Source of the DNA: Hyphomicrobiales bacterium
Lineage (GTDB): Bacteria; Pseudomonadota; Alphaproteobacteria; Rhizobiales; Beijerinckiaceae
NCBI GenBank assembly: GCA_027484655.1
Contig: JAIXSM010000076.1
Location: 1-64,000, forward strand
Direction of reading: 5' to 3'
Length of the DNA stretch: 64,000 bases
Positions 32,647-63,137 of the stretch are shown piece after piece (position 1 is the stretch's first letter; the number at the start of each line of letters is the position of its first letter). The position numbers and the translations under genes are program-made. The notes beneath the pieces are model-generated. The model was not told where the DNA came from. It worked only from the letters and a program-made list of their open reading frames with translations, and did not search any database.

Positions 32647-33651
32647 TCAGCGCAGCGCTTCAATCGTGCGCTTCACCACTTCCGCCGGCATGGAGTAGGC
32701 TTCCTCCACCAGTTTCTGCACCGCTTCGCCGCTCACAGGCGTGATCTCCAGCTTCGCCTTCTCGGCTTCGACCAGAAGTTCCTTGTCCTGCAGCGTGTCC
32801 ATGAAGGCCTTGCGCAACACGGCGACGCGCTGGGGCGGGAGGCCCGGAGGCGCCACGAACGGACGGCCCATGACCTGGCGGGCGAACACCAGCTTGAAGA
32901 CGCCGCGCGTGATATCGTCCTTGGCGAAGTCGGTGATGATCGGCACGTCCGGCAGGTCCGGATGCTTCTCGAGCGAGAGCTGCACGAGAACGTTGATCTT
33001 CTTTTCCTTCAGCCAGGACGCCTGCGTTGACACAACCGACGACCACGACCAGCCGCAGCGGCCGCCCACTTCCCCGCGCTCCATGGCGAGGTTGATGTCG
33101 TTGCCGCCCGGATAGCCGGCGACAATTCTCATCTTCGCACCGAGCACGCTGTTGAAGACCTTCGGGAACTGGTCGGTGTCGGCGCTGCCGCCGGTGCCGC
33201 CCACCACGAGTTCCTTCTCAAGCACCTGCTCGAACTTTGTCACGCCGGTGTTGTTCCAGGCCACGCAGACGCTGACTTCATCGTTGGCGCTGCCGATCCA
33301 GGTGAACTTGGTCGCGTCGAACTGCGCGCCGGGCTGGCCCAGCAGCGTATCGAACGCGATGCCGCGCGCGAACGTGCCGATGATGTTGCCGTCTTTCGGG
33401 GCGACATTGTAGAGCCAGTTGGCGAGGCGCATGGAGCCCGCGCCCGGCATGTTGTTGACCAAAACGTTGGGCGTGCCCGGCAGGTGGCGCGAGATGTGCC
33501 GCGCAAGGAGACGGGCGTACACGTCGTAGCCGCCGCCTGCGGAGTAGCCCACATACACGTTGAACGGCTTTTCCTGCGCCGAAGCGGCGCCCGTGAAAAG
33601 CGCCGCCGCAGCCGAGATGGCAAAAGCGGCGGTGGCGAACGATTTCTTCAT
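32647..33651 (-). CDS. Bug/TctC-type tripartite tricarboxylate transporter substrate-binding protein
   Basis: Predicted 334 aa from ATG 33651 (AAGGAGAGG upstream; the frame is open to 33711). It has a Sec signal peptide ending SAQ. The characteristic loop VGYSAGGGYDVYARLLARHI and VNNMPGAGSM are present, as in Bug proteins that bind carboxylates for TTT permeases. No permease genes (tctA/tctB) are in the window. It is a paralogue of the proteins at 45931-46962 and 46980-48005. Convergent with the SDR operon, so possibly involved in uptake of its substrate. Confidence 0.9.
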   Translation of the reverse strand: MKKSFATAAFAISAAAALFTGAASAQEKPFNVYVGYSAGGGYDVYARLLARHISRHLPGTPNVLVNNMPGAGSMRLANWLYNVAPKDGNIIGTFARGIAFDTLLGQPGAQFDATKFTWIGSANDEVSVCVAWNNTGVTKFEQVLEKELVVGGTGGSADTDQFPKVFNSVLGAKMRIVAGYPGGNDINLAMERGEVGGRCGWSWSSVVSTQASWLKEKKINVLVQLSLEKHPDLPDVPIITDFAKDDITRGVFKLVFARQVMGRPFVAPPGLPPQRVAVLRKAFMDTLQDKELLVEAEKAKLEITPVSGEAVQKLVEEAYSMPAEVVKRTIEALR

Positions 33652-51659: not shown

Positions 51660-52349
51660 GTCAGCCCCATTCGTCGAGTTCGCCGGTTTATCGATGCGGG
51701 GTCAGCCCATAACCCCGATCGCCGACAATTAATCTGTTAACGACTAATTAATAAGAAAGAAGCTCAAAGGCGGCTGTCTTGTCAACCTGTTTCGGCGTTT
51801 CAACGACGATGGACGAGCAGTGTGTCCATCGTGCCCGCTCCGGGCTGTGTATAATTTGTTTCTCAATGGGATAGGTTGTGCTGTAAGCGCCTGTTCCCGA
51901 ACACCCTGCGACCCGGCGCGCGGCTGTTTTCGCGCTCCGGCGCCTTGTGGAAGTACGCTGTCGCGAGCGCGCTTAAGGTCATGTTTTCGGCGCCCCGTCG
52001 AGGTTGCTGGCGCTTGGGGCGCTCCGCTTGATTCGCACAGTCGGTCCCGCGGGGAGAAAAACAGAGCGCCCTCGCCCCGCAAGCGGGGCGAGGGGGCGCA
52101 AAAAGGCTAAGCTCACGTTCCTTCGATGCGGCGTCAGGAACGACGGGAAGCCATGCGCCTGGCGGCTGTTGTCTTGGGGGGCCACAACCGCTTCGAGACA
52201 TAGAATCACGTTCAGACAAGCGTTACTATGGGGCTCTCCGGCGATGTTTGTTTATAGTTAATGAAAAGTGCTTTCGGCGTCGGAAGCTCTTGGGCCGGGT
52301 TGCTGCGAGTCCGGTTTGCGAGCGCGCTTCGTTGCGATATGCTTCGCTC
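51660..52349. other. 690-bp intergenic region
   Basis: No gene is supported. It contains one strong REP-like palindrome (52066-52099). An AT-rich stretch lies at 51715-51770, just upstream of the minus-strand coiled-coil gene, and another at about 52240-52265 upstream of the phosphohexomutase. Both are possible promoter sites. Confidence 0.5.
52066..52099. repeat. REP-like palindrome
   Basis: GCGCCCTCGCCCCGC, two-base centre AA, then GCGGGGCGAGGGGGCGC: a near-perfect 15-bp stem related to the hairpin at 34-61. Confidence 0.7.
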
Positions 52350-53831
52350 ATGCCTCCTGCCCCTTCACTTCGCGACCATGCGCCCGCCGTCGGGTTCGGA
52401 ACGAGCGGCGTGCGCGCGCTCGTTTGCGATCTCACGCCGAGCGTCGTTAGCGCCTATGCGCGAGCTTTCGTGCGCCGTGTCAGCGCGTGTGCTGGCCCAT
52501 TGGCCGAATGCGTTGTTGGGTGGGACTTGCGGCCCAGCAGCCCGGCGATAGCGGCCGCCGTGTGCGCGGGGCTTGAGCGCGAAGGCGTTCGTCCGGTCAT
52601 TGAGGGCGCCTGCCCGACGCCTGCGCTGGCCTTGCGCGCCGCGCATCTGCGCGCGCCCGCCATTATCATCACGGGTAGCCACATCCCGTTCGACCGAAAC
52701 GGCATCAAGTTTTACACGCCCACGGGCGAGATCACGAAAACCGATGAAGCGTCCATCGCCTCGATGGACGCTGCTGCGCTGCTTGAGGACGATACCGCTT
52801 TGGCCAGTGCGGTCGCCGCTTGGAGCGTGCGCACGCGGGGGCCGGTCGAGGGCGTCGCTGCGCGGGAGTATGCGGCGCGCCTGGCCGCCGTCGCAGGAAG
52901 CGGGTTCGCCGGTATGCGCATCGGCGTTTACCAGCACAGCGCCGTTGGACGGGATCTTCTTGCGGCCTTGCTTGAGCAGGTCGGCGCGCAGGTTGTTCCG
53001 CTGGGGCGCAGCGATGCGTTCATTCCCATTGATACGGAGGTCGTCTCGGCCGACGACGAGCGCATGGCGGCTGTGTGGTGCGCGCAGCATCGTCTGGACG
53101 CCATTGTCTCGACCGATGGGGACGGCGACCGTCCATGGGTGTGCGACGAGCGCGGCGCGTTCCTGCGCGGCGACCTCCTCGGCGCCCTGTGCGCGCGGCG
53201 CCTGGGAGCTGACGCTGTCGCAACGCCGGTCAGCTCCAACAGCGTGGTCGAGGCGTGCGGCGCGTTCGGCCACGTGGCGCGCACGCGCATCGGTTCGCCA
53301 TACGTGATTGAAGCGATGGAATCGCTGGCGCGCGCCGGTTGGACGCGCGTGGTGGGTTATGAGGCCAACGGCGGGTTTCTCACGCAGTCGCCATTGTCAG
53401 TCGACGGCGTTGAACTCGCGCCGCTGCCCACCCGAGACAGCGGATTGCCCATTCTGCTGGCGCTGAAAATCGCTCATGAACGCGGGGCGCCACTGTCGGC
53501 GCTGGCTGATATGCTTCCGGCCCGCCGCACCGCATCTGGCAGTTTGAAAGGCATTCCGGCGACTGAGAGCGGTGTTTTTCTCAGCCGCCTGCGGGCGGAC
53601 GATGAGCGTCTTGCCGAATTCCTCGCGTTTGCGGGCGCGCTCCCGGTCTCCCGCGACGAGACGGACGGCCTGCGCGTCACGTTGTCGTCTGGCGACGTGG
53701 TGCATCTTCGCCCCTCGGGCAACGCGCCGGAGTTTCGCTGTTACACCGAGGCGACGACACAGCATGAGGCGGATGCACTGCTCGCCCGGGCGCTTCAGGC
53801 GATTGAAACGCGCTTTGACGTCGGGCGCTAA
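52350..53831 (+). CDS. phosphomannomutase/phosphoglucomutase-like phosphohexomutase
   Basis: 493 aa from ATG 52350. The four active-site loops are in order: phosphoserine loop TGSHIPFDRNG (Ser110), metal loop STDGDGDRP (about 255-262), sugar loop GYEANGG and phosphate loop RPSGNAPEF. TGSHIP varies from the usual TASHNP. It interconverts hexose 1- and 6-phosphates for polysaccharide or nucleotide-sugar synthesis. No polysaccharide genes are adjacent. Convergent with the helicase gene, 20 bp apart. Confidence 0.88.
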   Translation: MPPAPSLRDHAPAVGFGTSGVRALVCDLTPSVVSAYARAFVRRVSACAGPLAECVVGWDLRPSSPAIAAAVCAGLEREGVRPVIEGACPTPALALRAAHLRAPAIIITGSHIPFDRNGIKFYTPTGEITKTDEASIASMDAAALLEDDTALASAVAAWSVRTRGPVEGVAAREYAARLAAVAGSGFAGMRIGVYQHSAVGRDLLAALLEQVGAQVVPLGRSDAFIPIDTEVVSADDERMAAVWCAQHRLDAIVSTDGDGDRPWVCDERGAFLRGDLLGALCARRLGADAVATPVSSNSVVEACGAFGHVARTRIGSPYVIEAMESLARAGWTRVVGYEANGGFLTQSPLSVDGVELAPLPTRDSGLPILLALKIAHERGAPLSALADMLPARRTASGSLKGIPATESGVFLSRLRADDERLAEFLAFAGALPVSRDETDGLRVTLSSGDVVHLRPSGNAPEFRCYTEATTQHEADALLARALQAIETRFDVGR

Positions 53832-53851: not shown

Positions 53852-56800
53852 TTAGGCGCCCACGGTCCGATCAGCCTTGCGCACCAGAATGCGGCGCATG
53901 CGGCCCTCCAGCTCCACTTCTATCTCCTCGTCTTCGTGAGCGCCGAGGAGCGCGGCTCCCAGAGCCGAGGTCGCTGGAACAAAGCCGTTCGCCAGGTCGT
54001 CGCGGTCCTGTGTCAGCGTGATTGTAGCCTGTTGTTGGTCATCCAGATGTTGGATCACAAGCCGGTCGCCGATCTTGGCGCCGTCCGCCGGCGTCTCGGT
54101 CTCGCTCGCAGGCGCGGCGTCCAAGGTGTTTTTCACCGGAGCGCGCATGTGCAGTGTGTAAACTGTCGCGTTGCGGCCGTGTTCGCCGGGCTGGATGTCC
54201 ATCCGCTCCAGCGTTTCAAACAAGTCCGCCATGCATCCTTCCGGGTCGAGGATGTAGCTTGAGGCCCAGCAACGCCAGAACCGCCAGCCCACGCGTTCGA
54301 GAACGCGCTGTCGGCGCATATCTTCCGCCCAGCGTTCTGGCCCGTGGCCGCTGTCTCCGTCGCATTCCACGGCGAGCCTGCGCCCGGACGCGCCTTCCAC
54401 CACGAGATCGATGCGAAAGCCCGATGCGCCCACTTGCAGCGTCACATGGTAGCCCGCGCTCACAAGACGCCTGAAGACCTCACGCTCAAAGTCGGACTCG
54501 CACAAAGCCTCCAGATCGCCCTTTTGCGCGACGCCTCCCGCCATGGGGTCGCGAAAATGCCGGATCACGCGGGCTTTCAGGTCGTTGGGCTTCAGCTCTC
54601 CTTCCTCGACGGAACGCACGAGTACGAGCCTGTCTCTGGCCCGCGACATCGCGACGTTGAAACGCTGCTCGAACTGCGTCGCCGTTTGCGCTTGCTTGCT
54701 CGCAGGGTCGGCGATCATCGACAGGAAGATGACGTCGCGCTCATTGCCCTGAAACGTAGCGCTGTCGCCGCAGGCGATCTTGTGGCGACGGATCACATCG
54801 TCGCCGAGTTGATCGAGGATCATGTGATTGATGAGCGCGGCCTGCTTGGCGCCGATCAGTGAAACGACGCCGATGGTTCGCCAACGATCCTGCGCCTCGA
54901 CGCGGGCGAGCGCAGGATCGTTCACGAACGCGCGAATCTCGTCGACGATCACTTCCGCCTCGCGCCTGTTCTGGCGGTCGCCGCTCCGGCGTCCGTCTGG
55001 CACGTAGATGTCGATGAGCGGGGGATCGAGCCGTTCGCAGGCGGCGGGCACGCGCAAAGGCAGCAGCGGCTCGGGATAGAAATTCATGGAGAAGCGGATG
55101 ATTGGCTCCACGCACCGGAAATGCTCACGCAGCATCACCAGATTGCCGGGGAACATCACCTTGGCGAGTTCATAGAGCGACGTTCCCGGCAGCAGCAGGT
55201 TCTTGTGCGCATGGTCGCGCAGATAATTGTGCTCCAGCCGTTCGATCTTCGCGCTCTCGATGAAGGCCGCAGTGGGGCTGACCTGCCGGTCGTCGCCCAC
55301 CACGAGGATCTTCTTGCCTCGCAGCAAGGCGGGCGCTTCGCGGATGTCGGACTGCGAGGCCTCGTCCATGATGACGAGATCAAATGAGCCGAGTTCGCCC
55401 GGAAGCTGTTCGGCCACGCGCCATGTGGGCATGATCCAGCACGGGACGGAGCTGTAGCATTCCGCCATGGCGAGCTGCGCGTCGCGCCGGTTGCGCGCGG
55501 CGCCCTTGCCCGTTCCCCTGCCAGTGCGCCGGAGCGCCGCCGCGAACATGAGGAGCGCGCTACGCACGCTGGCGGTCATCGTGCGGCTGAGTTCATAGAA
55601 CGTGCGTTCCCGCACGACGCTCTCGAACATCTGCTGCACGTCCTGCTCGAGAGCGAGACGCTGGCGCGCCAATGCGCTCAGGCGCGCGCGGTCGTCGAGG
55701 CTTGCCAGCATCCCGCTGGCTGCGGCCCAGTCCCACGCCTCGCGCCAGTCGTCCGGGACGAGGCTGTCCCATGCGGAATCCGCGTGCTCAACGCGAAGGC
55801 GGCTCGCCCACAGCGGCGCCCCGGCGCACTCCAGAGCCGCCGTCACCTCGCGCACCACGTCGAGATGGGCTCGGAAGTGGTGCAGATCCTCTATCTGGGC
55901 GCGCAGCTTCGACCAGATGGACGCAATCTGCGCGCTGTCCAGATCCCCTCGCCCGAGCGCCTCGTAAAGCACCTCGATGGCGAGCTTGCCGACCTTGCCG
56001 CTGCCCTCGCCAAACATGGCCGCCAGACGCGCAACCTCCGTCCTCACGCCACCAAACTGAGCTGCGGCTGCGCCGTTGCGCAGGGCGGCCCCCAGTTCGC
56101 TCGCGGCGGCAGGATCAGCCCACAACGTCTGCCCCGTGGGGCCGCCTGGCGTGAGCGAGGGCAGGGTGCGCTCAAGCGCGGCGAGCGCTGCAGGCGCTTC
56201 ATGAACTACGGGATCAAGGCCTACCATCAGCTCCTGAAGATCGCGCGCCGACGAGACGGGCTGCGCGCCCAGCTCGTCACTCAGTGTTTTCCAGCGCACG
56301 CACAGCCCGCTCACCTGTTCGCGCCAGGCCAGAAAATCCAGCACCAGCGCCCATTCAGAGGCGTTCGCCGGAGGGCGTCCTTCAATACGGATCGCCTCGA
56401 TCACAGGCCGCAGGGTGCGTTCGCCAAACGACAGGAGGCCGAATGGCTTCTCGCCTCTGGCGAGCTTTACGAGAATGGGATACGCGCCCGCGGCTGCTGC
56501 GTCGAAAGTCTCCGGGATCTCCACGGGCATGGTCAGGAAACGCGGACGCTCGCGCAGGCAGACCCGCGCGTCGCCAGCGAATGCGTCCAGAGCGGCGAGC
56601 ACGCCGCCGTCGCCCGTGCGGGTTACGATCCGGTCCGCCAGCGCGGCCAGCCAGGGCGTCGCGCTGGCGGTCTCGCGAATGGCGCGCAGTCGCTCCAGCG
56701 CGACCGCTGCGGTCGTGGCCATATCGATCGCCGCGGGCGTTTCGATTTGCGCGGGCGGCGAGGAGCCGAGCGCCGCAGCGTCCTCAAACGTCTTGGCGCG

Positions 56801-58627
56801 CAGCAGGTTCTCATGCATTTGCGCGATCGTGGGGCCGTCTGGCAGTTCGTCGAGCCCCGGAGCCTCGCACTCCACATGTTCGAGACGAGCGCCAAGCGCG
56901 ATGCGCGCGGCGCGCAACCGCGCCATATCCTCGTCTGACGGCGCTGCTTCGGACGCCGATTGGGTCGGCCTGTCCTCGAACCAGGCGAAGGCGTCCGATG
57001 CGGATGCGACCCGCCTCGCGAGTTCCGCGGGCGTGAGGCCGTCCAGCGCTGGCGACAGCTGCGCAACGGCGCTCTGTTCAAGCGCAAGGTCGATGGCCGC
57101 AATCTGCCCCTGCAGACGCAACACCTTGGCCTCAAGATCCTGGATCAGTCGCGCCTGTTCAGCCGGCCGCACGCTTTCCACGACGGATTGCAGCATCCGG
57201 ACAGCGGCTTCGAGCTGCCGAAGGCCCGCCTGCTCGGTTGCGGTGATGCTGATCGCAAGGTCGCGCACGCCCTCGGGAAGCTGGTCACGGAGCACCGCCA
57301 ACGCCGGCTCCCCATGGGAGACGACCAGCACGCGACGACCGGTCGCCATGGCGTGGCAGATGATGTTGGAGATGGTGTGCGTCTTGCCCGTGCCCGGTGG
57401 GCCCTGAACAACTACGCCGTCCGATTTCTCAAGCCGGCGCACGATCTCGATCTGCTCGTCGTTAAAAGGCTTTGGAAAGAAAAGATCGAGGCAGGCATCA
57501 GTCCCGGGCTGGCCGTCCAAGTCGCTCGTGGCGCCGACGGAGGAGGGCAGCGGCGCCCATTCCTCTGTGCGCTCGGCGGCGGCGGGGCCCATCGCCAGCG
57601 CGCGCGCCGGACCTGGCAGGGATCCCGTCTCCTGCGCCCGCGCCACGGAGGCTTTCAGCCTCGCAATGTCGGCCAGCAAAAAATTGTCCGAGCGCCGGCG
57701 CGCGAACACCACCCAGCGATCAGTGACAGTCAGCCGATCCGCCGGGGCCGGCGGGGGCTGGTCCGGGTCGAGGGCTTTCTGGTCCGGCAGATAGACGCCG
57801 TCAGGGTCCAGCTGCGCCTGACAAGCGCGTAGCGCGGGCTCGAAGCTTTCGCGATTGAAGGGGCTCACGCCGTCTTCAGGCGGGGCTCCTGCGAGAGCGC
57901 GACGGGCGATGCTGTAGGCCAGAGGCGCGCCCTGCAGGCCGAGTTGGTCGTACGCCCTCAGGTTGATGTTGGCGGTCGCGGCGCGCGGGCGAACCTTGAT
58001 GGCCGCCCCGGCGCTCTCGTCAATCGCGACTTCCACAAGCCGCTCGACCAGCGGTAGATCGATCTCCGCGTCCGCTGTTTTCCATCGCGCAAGACCGACG
58101 CCCCAGACCAGCTCAAACGGCCTGTCGCCGCCGCCCAGTTCCGCCAGCTGCGCGGTCTCGAACAGCCGGTGATAGAGCTTGATGGCGCGACGGACCGGCC
58201 GTTCGCCGGCCGCCCAGGAGGCCCATTCCGCCTCGATCCACGCGGCGCATCGCGCGCCCAGATCGCCTTGATCCTCAATGCGCACACGAACGACAGGGGC
58301 TTTCGCGGGATCAGACGACAGCTCCAGCCAGTCCGCCAAATCCTCCGGCGGAGCCGGCGGCTCCGAGCGCTGCAGGCGCTCCACCTGCAGCCAGATTGGC
58401 CCGTCGTCGTCGGCGAGATCGAGGCTGACGCCCGGCAGCCCATGGAATTCATGCTGATGAAGGACGAGGGACTGCCCGGTGGGAAGCTTGTGCTCCGCGA
58501 GCTTCATGGCGTCGCGCTCATCGAGCCGCACCACCTGCTCGATGTACGTCAGCAACGCGTCAAGACGCTGCGCCGCGGTTTGAATGTTTTCCAAAAGAGA
58601 GTCCCGGCCGCGCCAAAAAGATCCCAA
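53852..58627 (-). CDS. superfamily-1 helicase fused to Vsr-like nuclease and GreA/GreB-C-like domain
   Basis: 1591 aa. After an N-terminal region of about 400 residues with no recognised domain come Walker A GPPGTGKTHTISNI (about 406-419), a roughly 680-residue insertion, Walker B VIMDEASQSD (about 1087) and motif VI NVAMSRARDRLVLV (about 1326): a UPF1-like SF1 helicase. A Vsr/DUF559-type nuclease (MTES_1575-like) follows, with RIDLV and AVECDGD at about 1404-1424. The last 70 residues (VIQHLDDQQQATITLTQDRD, then SALGAALLGAHEDEEIEV) resemble the GreA/GreB C-terminal domain. Helicase plus Vsr-like nuclease is typical of anti-phage or DNA-quality proteins, and the Gre-like tail is unusual. It lies beside tRNA-Gln. 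Confidence 0.88.
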   Translation of the reverse strand: MGSFWRGRDSLLENIQTAAQRLDALLTYIEQVVRLDERDAMKLAEHKLPTGQSLVLHQHEFHGLPGVSLDLADDDGPIWLQVERLQRSEPPAPPEDLADWLELSSDPAKAPVVRVRIEDQGDLGARCAAWIEAEWASWAAGERPVRRAIKLYHRLFETAQLAELGGGDRPFELVWGVGLARWKTADAEIDLPLVERLVEVAIDESAGAAIKVRPRAATANINLRAYDQLGLQGAPLAYSIARRALAGAPPEDGVSPFNRESFEPALRACQAQLDPDGVYLPDQKALDPDQPPPAPADRLTVTDRWVVFARRRSDNFLLADIARLKASVARAQETGSLPGPARALAMGPAAAERTEEWAPLPSSVGATSDLDGQPGTDACLDLFFPKPFNDEQIEIVRRLEKSDGVVVQGPPGTGKTHTISNIICHAMATGRRVLVVSHGEPALAVLRDQLPEGVRDLAISITATEQAGLRQLEAAVRMLQSVVESVRPAEQARLIQDLEAKVLRLQGQIAAIDLALEQSAVAQLSPALDGLTPAELARRVASASDAFAWFEDRPTQSASEAAPSDEDMARLRAARIALGARLEHVECEAPGLDELPDGPTIAQMHENLLRAKTFEDAAALGSSPPAQIETPAAIDMATTAAVALERLRAIRETASATPWLAALADRIVTRTGDGGVLAALDAFAGDARVCLRERPRFLTMPVEIPETFDAAAAGAYPILVKLARGEKPFGLLSFGERTLRPVIEAIRIEGRPPANASEWALVLDFLAWREQVSGLCVRWKTLSDELGAQPVSSARDLQELMVGLDPVVHEAPAALAALERTLPSLTPGGPTGQTLWADPAAASELGAALRNGAAAAQFGGVRTEVARLAAMFGEGSGKVGKLAIEVLYEALGRGDLDSAQIASIWSKLRAQIEDLHHFRAHLDVVREVTAALECAGAPLWASRLRVEHADSAWDSLVPDDWREAWDWAAASGMLASLDDRARLSALARQRLALEQDVQQMFESVVRERTFYELSRTMTASVRSALLMFAAALRRTGRGTGKGAARNRRDAQLAMAECYSSVPCWIMPTWRVAEQLPGELGSFDLVIMDEASQSDIREAPALLRGKKILVVGDDRQVSPTAAFIESAKIERLEHNYLRDHAHKNLLLPGTSLYELAKVMFPGNLVMLREHFRCVEPIIRFSMNFYPEPLLPLRVPAACERLDPPLIDIYVPDGRRSGDRQNRREAEVIVDEIRAFVNDPALARVEAQDRWRTIGVVSLIGAKQAALINHMILDQLGDDVIRRHKIACGDSATFQGNERDVIFLSMIADPASKQAQTATQFEQRFNVAMSRARDRLVLVRSVEEGELKPNDLKARVIRHFRDPMAGGVAQKGDLEALCESDFEREVFRRLVSAGYHVTLQVGASGFRIDLVVEGASGRRLAVECDGDSGHGPERWAEDMRRQRVLERVGWRFWRCWASSYILDPEGCMADLFETLERMDIQPGEHGRNATVYTLHMRAPVKNTLDAAPASETETPADGAKIGDRLVIQHLDDQQQATITLTQDRDDLANGFVPATSALGAALLGAHEDEEIEVELEGRMRRILVRKADRTVGA

Positions 58628-58812: not shown

Positions 58813-58887
58813 TGGCTGGGGCGGGAGGATTCGAACCTCCGTATGGCGGAATCAAAATCCGCTGCCTTACCGCTTGGCGACGCCCCA
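58813..58887 (-). tRNA. tRNA-Gln (TTG anticodon)
   Basis: On the minus strand: acceptor TGGGGCG/CGCCCCA with CCA encoded, a D-arm with AAGCGG, the anticodon stem GCGGA with loop TTTTGAT (anticodon TTG) and T-arm GGAGGTTCGAATCCTCC. Normal tRNA-Gln. It lies between the helicase-nuclease gene and tRNA-Pro. Confidence 0.95.
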
Positions 58888-59033
58888 ACGCGGGGCGGAC
58901 CATAATCGCAGGGGGCCGCCGCCGCAACTGCGATGGCGTCGTCTCCACCGCATGAAATTCGCTTGTCGAGACCGGGCCGTCTCGCTATAAGGCGGGCGTT
59001 CCGGGCCGCTGTAACGCGGCGCGCCCGGTGGTT

Positions 59034-59110
59034 CGGAGTGTAGCGCAGCCTGGTAGCGCACCTGCTTCGGGAGCAGGGGGTCGGAGGTTCGAATCCTCTC
59101 ACTCCGACCA
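59034..59110 (+). tRNA. tRNA-Pro (CGG anticodon)
   Basis: CGGAGTG/CACTCCG acceptor, discriminator A and CCA. The D-arm has GCGCAGCCTGGTAGCGC, the anticodon loop is TTCGGGA (anticodon CGG) and the T-arm is TCGGAGGTTCGAATCCTCT. 77 nt. Confidence 0.96.
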
Positions 59111-61202: not shown

Positions 61203-63137
61203 TCAGCGCACCGCCAGCGAGTGGGCTGCGGCGATGGCGCTCGCCTCACGGAGTTGTTTCGTTTTGAGCCCGCCGGCCTCCCGCGCCTGGGCGGCCGCCA
61301 GCGCATCGGCGATGCGCGGGGGCTGGCCCGCAGGTTCAAAAGCGGCGTCTGCGTCGGCGCTTTCCAGCGCCTTTGCGATGCTCGCGCGCTCATCGTCCGT
61401 TCCGCCGATGTCGAGCGCGAGCGCGAACGCAAGCGCTGGCCAACTCGCGGCCCGCGTCCGGGCGAGGCGGTAAACGGTGATAAACTGCGCCACGGCGCCA
61501 GGGCTGCGCCCGGCGAGCGGCGCGAGTTTTTGAAGCAGCTCTGTTTCCTCGGCGCTGACCGGCTGATCCCAGATCGACGTCTTGGCGTCGTGATCGGCCG
61601 TGGCCGCCGCCGCCTCCCGTGGTGCGAGCAGCCTGCGCACGAGATGCGCGTAGTCCTTGCTGGAGGCAGCGTCTATGCGCACGCCAATCTGCGCGCGACG
61701 CGCAAGCCGGCTGGCGCCGTCCGGACCCCAGCCTTGCGCCAGTCGCTCCGCATCCGCCGCAAACACGACGATGAACGGCGATCGGGCCAGCAGAAGCGCC
61801 GCTTCATCAAGGAAAGCCGCGGCCTTGGCGGGGCTGAGCGCATCCAGGTCATCAATGGCGACAATCACCCGATCCGGCCCGGCTCCCCGGGCGGCCTCCT
61901 GCGCCACCGTCTGGAGGAAACGCCTCGCCTGCCTGCGCGCCTCGCTTTCCGCAACCTCGAACGGCGACGCATCGTCGTGGCGGTGGACCGAGCCGCCGGA
62001 CGCGGCGCGCCGCTCCGCTTCCTCGGTGCGTCGGGCCTGGGCGTCCGCTTGCGCCGCAAGATCGTCAACGAGGCGGGTCTGGTTGCCGATCATCGAGTCA
62101 ATCTCACGCTGGCCCGCCTCTGTGTCGGCCTCCAGCAGCGCGACCCCGCGCAACAGCGGCGAGACGAAGCGACTGGCCCGCCAGATGTTCAGCACGACGC
62201 ACCCCAGCGCCGCCCACATGGACAGGGTTCGCAACCCGGAAAGCACGCCAATCTGCGCTCGTAGCCAGGCGGCTGTGCTCTGGCCCAATTCGCCCTGTTC
62301 CCCGATCCAGCCGATCCATGCGCCGCGCGTGTCATTCGCCAGTCCCAGCGCCCACGCGATGAGGACCAGCACGACGGCGAGGACCAGCAGCCGCGCCTGC
62401 CCGCGGAAGGCCCACATGGCGTGCAGGAAGGCGCCAGCGCGGCCTGCGAGGCTGCGGTTGTCCGACACGTCCCGGACGAGATCCTTGTACGTGGCGACCG
62501 GATCGCCAGACTCGAAGCCGAACGCGCGCAGGCGGCTCTCGATCCGCCCCCGGTTCGCCCGCGCCCACGAATCGATCCGTGAGCCGCCCGCCTGGTAGAG
62601 CACGGTCTCCGCAAGGCGCGCCCGGCGCCCGGAAAGCTCCCGCAGGGTCTGGCGCTCTCCGTCGAGGCGCCGCCGCAACTCGATCAGTCGCTCGCTGGCG
62701 ACCCGCACCGCGTCAACGGGATCGGCCCCCGACGCGACCGCCTCTTCCGCCAGAGCCGCATTGTTGCCCCCTGTGGCGCGCATCGCCTCGTAGACGCCTG
62801 CGGCCAGTGTTACTGCCGGCTCGGCGCCGGCGCTGGCGTCCACGCGTGCGATGACCACGTTCGGCGCGAAGGGCGAATCCGGGCCTGCGGAGCGCGAGAA
62901 CGCCTGCGCGAAGTCAAGCAAACGGCCGAGCGCGAAACTCTTTCCGGAGCCGGCGGGCCCGAGCAGGGCCATGGTCAGCGGATTGTTTTCCGACCGGTGC
63001 GCGGCAAGTTCCGCGAGCCCGCGAACGGCCGCGTCAAAGCCAAGCGCATCCGTCGATTCGGGAGTGGTCCTCACCTCGGCCGGGGCGGACGCGGGAACCG
63101 GTTCAACGTCTTGAACAAGCGTGCTGGTTTCGGTCAA
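61203..63137 (-). CDS. KAP-family P-loop NTPase with two membrane segments
   Basis: 644 aa. Walker A GPAGSGKSFALGRL (about 62-75). Membrane segments lie at about 246-268 (LLVLAVVLVLIAWALGLA) and 306-320. The second half has VIVAIDDLDALSPAKAAAFL (Walker B, about 423) and the VVFAADAERLAQGWG stretch, typical of KAP NTPases, where the transmembrane pair is inserted between the Walker motifs. The family is associated with membrane scaffolds and some phage-defence loci. No obvious partner gene is adjacent. The ATG at 63137 has GGAGGGAAG nearby upstream. Confidence 0.88.
   Translation of the reverse strand: MTETSTLVQDVEPVPASAPAEVRTTPESTDALGFDAAVRGLAELAAHRSENNPLTMALLGPAGSGKSFALGRLLDFAQAFSRSAGPDSPFAPNVVIARVDASAGAEPAVTLAAGVYEAMRATGGNNAALAEEAVASGADPVDAVRVASERLIELRRRLDGERQTLRELSGRRARLAETVLYQAGGSRIDSWARANRGRIESRLRAFGFESGDPVATYKDLVRDVSDNRSLAGRAGAFLHAMWAFRGQARLLVLAVVLVLIAWALGLANDTRGAWIGWIGEQGELGQSTAAWLRAQIGVLSGLRTLSMWAALGCVVLNIWRASRFVSPLLRGVALLEADTEAGQREIDSMIGNQTRLVDDLAAQADAQARRTEEAERRAASGGSVHRHDDASPFEVAESEARRQARRFLQTVAQEAARGAGPDRVIVAIDDLDALSPAKAAAFLDEAALLLARSPFIVVFAADAERLAQGWGPDGASRLARRAQIGVRIDAASSKDYAHLVRRLLAPREAAAATADHDAKTSIWDQPVSAEETELLQKLAPLAGRSPGAVAQFITVYRLARTRAASWPALAFALALDIGGTDDERASIAKALESADADAAFEPAGQPPRIADALAAAQAREAGGLKTKQLREASAIAAAHSLAVR

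What the first reader, a model, noticed from the sequence alone, without database searches (positions are those of the whole stretch)
53852..58627. Helicase-nuclease protein with a GreA/GreB-like tail
A single 1591-aa protein combines an unrecognised N-terminus, an SF1 helicase with a roughly 680-residue insertion between Walker A and B, a Vsr/DUF559-type nuclease with intact RIDLV and AVECDGD residues, and a C-terminal domain resembling that of GreA/GreB. Gre C-domains dock on the RNA polymerase secondary channel region. The fusion suggests a nuclease-helicase recruited to transcription, or one sensing stalled polymerase or R-loops. I do not know of a described system with this exact order.
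Basis: partly seen in the sequence, partly recalled or inferred. Interest (0 to 1): 0.8.

Follow-up and report, generated by a model that had tools for sequence, protein, structure and literature searches.

The report
Helicase-nuclease with a GreA-like tail
This bacterial gene makes a large nucleic-acid unwinding and cutting protein, resembling known virus-defence proteins, that ends in the part of the GreA factor normally used to hold on to RNA polymerase; if the tail works that way, it would be a defence enzyme aimed at transcription.

Summary
The 1591-aa minus-strand ORF encodes a conserved protein: an N-terminal domain with no solved relative found, a UPF1-type SF1 helicase with a ~600-aa insert, an intact MTES_1575 (Vsr-like) nuclease, a fast-evolving linker, and a constrained GreA/GreB C-terminal domain. 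The predicted tail structure matches only GreA/GreB/Gfh1/Rnk structures below E = 0.001; HelD, an SF1 ATPase that binds RNA polymerase, comes next at E 0.02-0.03. The family is patchy (2 of 51 genomes of the genus), spread over several phyla and found on plasmids. Some members lie beside BREX, GmrSD, type I restriction or toxin-antitoxin genes; these cases were picked, not tested for enrichment. The C-terminal slot varies: Gre-C, nothing, or a DUF3320-type end; Gre-C also follows the same nuclease in the separate DUF4011/PDC-S37 branch. Best explanation: a mobile defence helicase-nuclease docked on RNA polymerase by its tail (0.55). Polymerase binding is inferred, and this copy departs from the GreA contact motif at two positions. 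Helicase-Vsr defence proteins and Gre-C conflict proteins are each in print; I found no paper joining them. New variant of a known kind.

The parts
53852..58627 (-). whole gene, 1591 aa (TTG start as called; start unsettled)
57578..58627 (-). N-terminal domain, about residues 1-350; defines this family
   Evidence: AlphaFold2 model of residues 1-384: pLDDT 85.4, pTM 0.74, low after 353; no PDB fold match below 1e-3; only one PDB sequence match up to E 1, at 0.92; not DUF4011 (hhalign probability 0.1)
57281..57475 (-). SF1 helicase first part with Walker A (K415), residues 385-449
   Evidence: Pfam AAA_11; conservation
55463..57280 (-). insert between Walker A and Walker B, residues 450-1055
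   Evidence: nearly gap-free across 39 members; omega 0.11-0.18 in 7 of 8 pairs, 0.48 in one (residues 480-1000); no PDB sequence match at E <= 0.01
54593..55462 (-). helicase Walker B (DEASQ) to motif VI, residues 1056-1345
   Evidence: Pfam AAA_12; conservation
54182..54520 (-). Vsr-like MTES_1575 nuclease, residues 1370-1482, catalytic residues intact
   Evidence: weak PDB match 3hrl endonuclease-like at E 0.011, beside an unrelated cytochrome P450 at 0.023
54089..54181 (-). fast-evolving linker, residues 1483-1513
   Evidence: omega 0.29-0.78 over 8 pairs
53888..54088 (-). GreA/GreB C-terminal (FKBP-like) domain, residues 1514-1580
58813..58887 (-). tRNA-Gln whose 3' end faces the gene; context only

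Best explanation
A horizontally acquired defence effector. The SF1 helicase and Vsr-like nuclease form the working part that unwinds and cuts nucleic acid. The N-terminal domain and the insert probably sense substrate or hold the nuclease in check. The Gre C-domain, on a flexible linker and without the Gre coiled-coil finger, tethers the enzyme to the beta-prime rim helices of RNA polymerase, so that cutting happens at transcribed DNA, for instance phage DNA being transcribed by the host polymerase. Across the class the C-terminal slot works as an exchangeable address label: Gre-C for polymerase, DUF3320/wHTH for DNA, or none. Shown: domains, conservation, tail fold (predicted), tail constraint, patchy spread, slot variation. 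Inferred: defence role, polymerase docking, DNA as substrate, trigger, address-label role.
For: Tail is Gre-C by profile, genome search (351 of 398 genomes of the phylum hit at E <= 1e-4; the rows shown, a capped list, are mostly GreA-sized frames) and fold (all 14 PDB hits below 1e-3 are GreA/GreB/Gfh1/Rnk; HelD next). Tail omega 0.06-0.14 in 7 of 8 pairs and 0.29 in one, against 0.29-0.78 for the linker. SPxG motif over 30 tails, near-copies included: Ser/Thr in 23 at the serine, Pro in 23, Gly in 27; S127E at the matching serine of mycobacterial Gre abolished RNAP pull-down (PMC3132773, passages). Defence kinship: NCBIfam ProA 8.7e-70 and Hhe 5.1e-53, PADLOC PDC-S37 2.8e-65. Spread: N-terminal profile in 2 of 51 genomes of the genus; plasmid copies. 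Neighbours, picked cases: brxL ends 63 bp upstream on two Acinetobacter plasmids, a GmrSD ORF 8 bp downstream in L019, type I restriction in L029, restriction endonuclease, methyltransferase and AbiE on a Sphingobium plasmid. Gre-C also in the DUF4011 branch.
Against: No binding or defence assay exists. This copy has Pro at the position of E. coli GreA S121 (S121P reduced binding there; PMC7527559, passages; position matched by me on the alignment) and Ala in place of the motif proline. Residues other than Ser/Thr stand at the motif serine in 7 of 30 tails. Sixteen members of one clade lack the tail, so it is dispensable for the core. Of five window neighbours scanned, PADLOC matches one, weakly and partly (PifA, 9.1e-6), so no clear defence partner is seen in this window. 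Neighbours of relatives were hand-picked, so no enrichment is shown. Scores fall far below the ProA and Hhe equivalog cut-offs. The one PDB chain ranked above GreA in the tail profile search is ribosomal protein bS1.
Confidence: 0.55

Rival explanations
1. A host maintenance factor: like HelD or Mfd it docks on stalled RNA polymerase, clears it with the helicase and trims nucleic acid for repair or recycling.
For: HelD, an SF1 ATPase with a Gre-like region including the globular domain, binds RNAP (PMC7749165, passages) and is the next fold match after the Gre proteins. An SbcD-like phosphoesterase lies within 6 kb in 4 of 56 loci (L018, L022, L024, L031), with an SbcC-like gene beside it in L022 and L024.
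Against: Only 2 of 51 genomes of the genus carry it; plasmid copies; restriction and BREX neighbours; kinship with anti-phage models.
Confidence: 0.2
2. The Gre-C domain is an old borrowed fold that no longer binds polymerase here; it holds another protein, another subunit or the protein's own nuclease.
For: Contact motif altered in this copy (Ala for Pro, Pro at the S121 position) and in 7 of 30 tails at the serine; the domain can be absent.
Against: Strong purifying selection in 7 of 8 pairs; SPxG pattern kept in most tails; the same domain sits after the nuclease in two branches.
Confidence: 0.17
3. The tail is a bait or guard: phages that seize or block the polymerase secondary channel displace it, and release switches on the nuclease.
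For: Secondary-channel factors compete for one site (PMC4598747, passages); the rest is inference.
Against: I have no evidence of a phage factor or a release step for this protein.
Confidence: 0.08

Closest known systems
Hhe / PDC-S37 / ProA-type proteins (SF1 helicase and MTES_1575-type nuclease; NCBIfam NF042953, NF058533; PADLOC PDLC05009)
   Same: Helicase with large insert followed by the nuclease; E 2.8e-65 to PDC-S37 and 8.7e-70 to ProA. In the sister branch of the tree (6 rows) four carry Gre-C: L073 and L171-L173, three of them fetched because they had it. Pfam confirms DUF4011 in the four of the six that were scanned (L073, L074, L171, L173); L171 and L173 score 1036 and 1203 bits to PDC-S37.
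   Different: N-terminal domain here is not DUF4011; scores 180-236 bits against cut-offs of 1500-2000.
Giant SF-I helicase + Vsr REase + wHTH proteins of Anantharaman et al. 2013 (PMC3710099; passages)
   Same: Same helicase-Vsr order; proposed to recognise invading DNA with the C-terminal wHTH, which that paper says overlaps DUF3320. Sphingobium plasmid members of this family are named DUF3320 domain-containing in their records and lack Gre-C.
   Different: Here the terminal slot is Gre-C; no HEPN or transglutaminase family is among the 25 of 27 Pfam matches shown.
TPR-GreA/B-C-PIN conflict systems of Kaur et al. 2021 (PMC8195603; passages; Pfam PF20698, PF24388)
   Same: Gre-C in a proposed conflict protein predicted to act on polymerase hijacked by a virus. 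Genes matching those Pfam families lie near a family member in L033.
   Different: In the passages seen: TPR, Gre-C and PIN with a variable N-terminal effector, no helicase-MTES_1575 core.
HelD
   Same: SF1 ATPase carrying a Gre-like region that binds RNAP (PMC7749165; passages; fold ranks 15-16, E 0.023 and 0.031).
   Different: Gre-like part is N-terminal with a coiled coil; role in polymerase recycling; that it has no nuclease domain is recalled.

Membership tests
GreA/GreB C-terminal domain (PF01272) | profile score over gathering cut-off | tested here: met
   29.4 and 28.6 bits against 26.9 for the tail alone and in the translated genome; 22.6 bits in the whole-protein scan, below it
GreA/GreB C-terminal domain (PF01272) | FKBP-like Gre-CTD fold | tested here: met
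   predicted model pLDDT 85.6; 14 of 14 PDB hits below 1e-3 are Gre-family
GreA/GreB transcription factors | N-terminal coiled coil with acidic tip | tested here: not met
   no Gre N-terminal family among the 25 of 27 Pfam matches shown; a nuclease and a fast linker precede the C-domain
Gre-type RNAP binder | binding to beta-prime rim helices | not testable with these tools
   needs a pull-down or complex structure; motif partly kept
Hhe (NF042953) | score over the equivalog cut-off | tested here: not met
   180 bits against 2000
Hhe / PDC-S37 | N-terminal DUF4011 | tested here: not met
   no DUF4011 among the matches shown; hhalign probability 0.1. That PDC-S37 itself contains DUF4011 is inferred from members
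ProA (NF058533) | score over the equivalog cut-off | tested here: not met
   235.6 bits against 1500
TPR-GreAB-C-PIN conflict system | TPR repeats and PIN nuclease | tested here: not met
   neither is among the Pfam matches shown, best 25 of 27
SF1 UPF1-type helicase | Walker A, DEAx, motif VI intact | tested here: met
MTES_1575 Vsr-like nuclease | catalytic E/Q/D/ExD residues | tested here: met
   109.3 bits against 38.2; E1381, Q1398, D1407, E1421, D1423 conserved. Which residues are catalytic is recalled from the nuclease fold
anti-phage defence system | protects a host from phage | not testable with these tools
   no assay; context only

The most novel reading that the evidence does not exclude
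Bacteria carry a class of defence helicase-nucleases whose last domain is an exchangeable address label; in one large family and again in the DUF4011/PDC-S37 branch that label is the polymerase-docking half of GreA, so immunity is delivered to DNA by riding on the host transcription machine.
Probability: 0.4. Interest if true: 0.82.

Novelty: new variant of a known kind. Interest (0 to 1): 0.62.

Why it matters
How defence helicase-nucleases of this kind tell phage from host DNA is, as far as I know, open. A polymerase-docking tail would offer one way: act where transcription is, or where it is abnormal. The variable C-terminal slot gives a ready test by swapping or removing the tail in laboratory strains. 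It would also tie phage takeover of RNA polymerase to immunity, as predicted for the TPR-GreA/B-C-PIN proteins (PMC8195603, passages).

Tried and rejected
Tail as chance match: rejected. The top row of the PDB profile search was ribosomal protein bS1 (2.5e-6), made of weak repeats (15.6 bits at best each) that share a G-D-x-V stretch; GreA follows at 1.7e-5 over the whole domain. I treat bS1 as chance.

N-terminal domain as DUF4011: rejected. N-terminal fold: nothing in PDB below 1e-3; best viral match a myovirus AAA protein at 1.4e-3 with TM 0.25, not pursued. Insert: no PDB sequence match at E <= 0.01; its fold was not predicted. The VIA-align library was not on the machine.

tRNA integration: exact 14-base words from the tRNA-Gln 3' end and its surroundings recur in the window only at 32829 (one word) and in the neighbouring tRNA-Pro gene, so no island end was found. 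On the tRNA-Gln side (0.8-1.7 kb compared) no ORF of this genome clusters with any of 10 relatives; on the TauE side ORFs cluster with at least two, G748 and G745. The site looks variable, no more.

Recurrent partner gene: none is general. Clustering 2114 ORFs within 6 kb of the gene in 56 loci gave one cluster in 7 loci, which I judge to be shadow ORFs, and then clusters of 4 loci at most; one of these is an SbcD-like phosphoesterase (L018, L022, L024, L031), the name being mine from Metallophos matches in two. Gene neighbours were listed for 30 loci (13, 17) and 18 proteins were picked for Pfam scans (8, 10) because they looked telling; this is not an enrichment test. Of 311 plasmid records hit, 7 were opened; the 221 Klebsiella records were not. 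Phage records: 3 hit, none over 32% of the query.

Limits of counts: first looks score only a few candidates per genome; G041, which has a Gre-tailed protein (L073), gave no match at the cut-off. Genome contigs was scanned once with six peptide patterns, which favours close relatives. The tail profile was built from most of the tails it then finds; L072 and L073 (and L068, a near copy of L048) were not in it. In the tree L023 is labelled without Gre although its contig ends there, and L030 with Gre although its tail lies past a break; L023 is ungrouped and L030 still counts as Gre.

Full report
Observation. The ORF at 53852-58627 (-) is real, 1591 aa, with one match in its own assembly. Pfam gives AAA_11, AAA_12 and MTES_1575 above cut-off and GreA_GreB at 22.6 bits in the whole-protein scan, below the 26.9 cut-off. 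The tail alone passes (29.4 bits; 28.6 in the translated genome).

Family. One scan of genome contigs returned 56 related loci; by record title they come from Alpha-, Beta-, Gamma- and Deltaproteobacteria, Acidobacteria, Planctomycetes and others. Aligning 39 members gave 212 near-invariant positions, including the helicase motifs and nuclease residues E1381, Q1398, D1407, E1421 and D1423. The N-terminal domain is predicted with confidence (pLDDT 85.4) but matches no solved structure below 1e-3, has one PDB sequence match up to E 1, at 0.92, and is not DUF4011. The insert has no PDB sequence match at E <= 0.01, but the ProA model aligns through it in one stretch, so large inserts belong to the wider class.

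Tail. Of 44 proteins (the 39 members plus L065, L069, L073, L074 and L075), 22 score over 50 bits with a profile of the tails, most of them being in that profile; 16 that form one supported clade have no match; L023 is cut by its contig end; L030 has a break; L065, L069, L074 and L075 lack it (tree). L059, a fragment, carries the tail (68.6 bits) followed by a cysteine-rich, zinc-ribbon-like stretch (the zinc-ribbon reading is by eye, and one search gave no Pfam match there). The profile of 27 tails finds GreA, Rnk and Gfh1 structures, below ribosomal protein bS1, Pfam GreA_GreB in 26 of 27 members at E <= 0.1, and matches in 351 of 398 genomes of the phylum; in the capped list of rows most are GreA-sized frames and only G000 shows a frame over 1000 aa. 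The predicted tail structure (pLDDT 85.6) hits 14 PDB chains below 1e-3, all Gre-family; ranks 15-16 are HelD at 0.023 and 0.031.

Constraint. In eight pairs of relatives, which share members and so are not independent, tail omega is 0.06-0.14 in seven and 0.29 in the Lichenibacterium pair, while the linker is 0.29-0.78. The tail is thus a bounded, selected domain on a loose tether.

Polymerase contact. The Gre C-domain binds the beta-prime rim helices (PMC7527559, passages; see also PMC4598747, passages). S127E in mycobacterial Gre, the serine of its SPLG motif (placed by me from the primer printed in the paper), abolished RNAP pull-down (PMC3132773, passages). At that column 30 tails, near-copies included, have Ser 15, Thr 8, His 4, and one each of Tyr, Asp, Glu; the next column has Pro in 23, and the Gly column Gly in 27. 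The copy in this window reads SALG: it keeps the serine (S1554) but has Ala for Pro, and Pro1551 sits at the place of E. coli S121, whose change to Pro reduced binding (residue numbers counted by me). Binding by this very copy is therefore less sure than for its relatives.

Slot variation. The same slot holds different things. Seven plasmid proteins that match the N-terminal profile were read: Microvirga ossetica with Gre-C; two Variovorax and two Acinetobacter without; two Sphingobium without Gre-C and named DUF3320 domain-containing in their records. In the sister branch, L171 and L173 carry Gre-C above the Pfam cut-off after the nuclease, L172 carries it by the tail profile, and L073 has it at 22.1 bits, below the cut-off, between nuclease and DUF3320. 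Of 30 loci fetched from a search of 347 genomes of the order, 4 carry the tail, this window's included. Trees need at least 3 or 4 changes of tail state. Recurrent joining or repeated loss are both possible.

Spread and context. The N-terminal profile finds the family in 2 of 51 genomes of the genus. In this window the gene lies beside a tRNA-Gln/tRNA-Pro pair, and its other neighbour, a phosphomannomutase-like gene, has a close relative in only one of the other 40 genomes searched. Of five window neighbours scanned with PADLOC, four gave nothing and one a weak partial PifA match. Elsewhere, picked cases show brxL ending 63 bp upstream on two Acinetobacter plasmids, a GmrSD ORF starting 8 bp downstream in Rhodopseudomonas, as mechanically called (L019), type I restriction in Nitrosomonas (L029), a restriction endonuclease, methyltransferase and AbiE on a Sphingobium plasmid, SbcC- and SbcD-like genes with a UvrD-nuclease (L022) or a DrmD-like helicase (L024), and, in Microvirga sesbaniae, genes matching the Pfam families of the published Gre-C/PIN system (L033). 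These were chosen because they looked telling.

Known work. SF-I helicase plus Vsr nuclease plus wHTH giants were described in 2013, the wHTH being proposed to recognise invading DNA (PMC3710099, passages). Gre-C in conflict proteins, with TPR and PIN, was described in 2021 and predicted to act on hijacked polymerase (PMC8195603, passages). HelD shows that an SF1 ATPase can carry a Gre-like polymerase-binding part (PMC7749165, passages). I found no paper on helicase-nuclease-Gre-C proteins in searches; the library lacks most subscription journals, and domain databases may list the architecture.

Reading. Defence role about 0.75; tail binds polymerase about 0.7; both about 0.55; cutting of transcribed phage DNA about 0.35. 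These are my estimates.

Noticed in passing
L033 14556-20935 (-): Two neighbouring genes match Pfam Permuted_GreAB-C (PF24388) and PIN-TPR-GreABC (PF20698), about 1.6 kb from a helicase-nuclease-Gre gene: two Gre-C systems side by side.
   Followed up: partly
L177 6350-11080; L178 8350-13080: Tail-less family members start 63 bp after brxL in BREX loci on Acinetobacter plasmids.
   Followed up: partly
window 52248-53831 (+): Phosphomannomutase-like gene with a close relative (63%) in only one of the other 40 genomes searched in the genus.
   Followed up: partly
window 58813-59110: tRNA-Gln/tRNA-Pro pair; on the tRNA-Gln 3' side no ORF clusters with 10 relatives compared, on the TauE side ORFs cluster with at least two.
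   Followed up: partly
L171, L172, L173, L073: Proteins of the DUF4011/PDC-S37 branch that also carry a Gre C-domain after the nuclease; in L073 it lies before DUF3320.
   Followed up: yes
L059 2-1969 (+): Family member with a cysteine-rich zinc-ribbon-like stretch after the Gre domain (by eye).
   Followed up: no
window 61203-63137 (-): 644-aa ORF with weak AAA_22/KAP NTPase matches and a partial PADLOC PifA match (9.1e-6).
   Followed up: no
L022 42-7783; L024 5057-10367: SbcD-like and SbcC-like genes next to family members in Bradyrhizobium and a Blastocatellia MAG, with a UvrD-PDDEXK protein or a DrmD-like helicase.
   Followed up: partly
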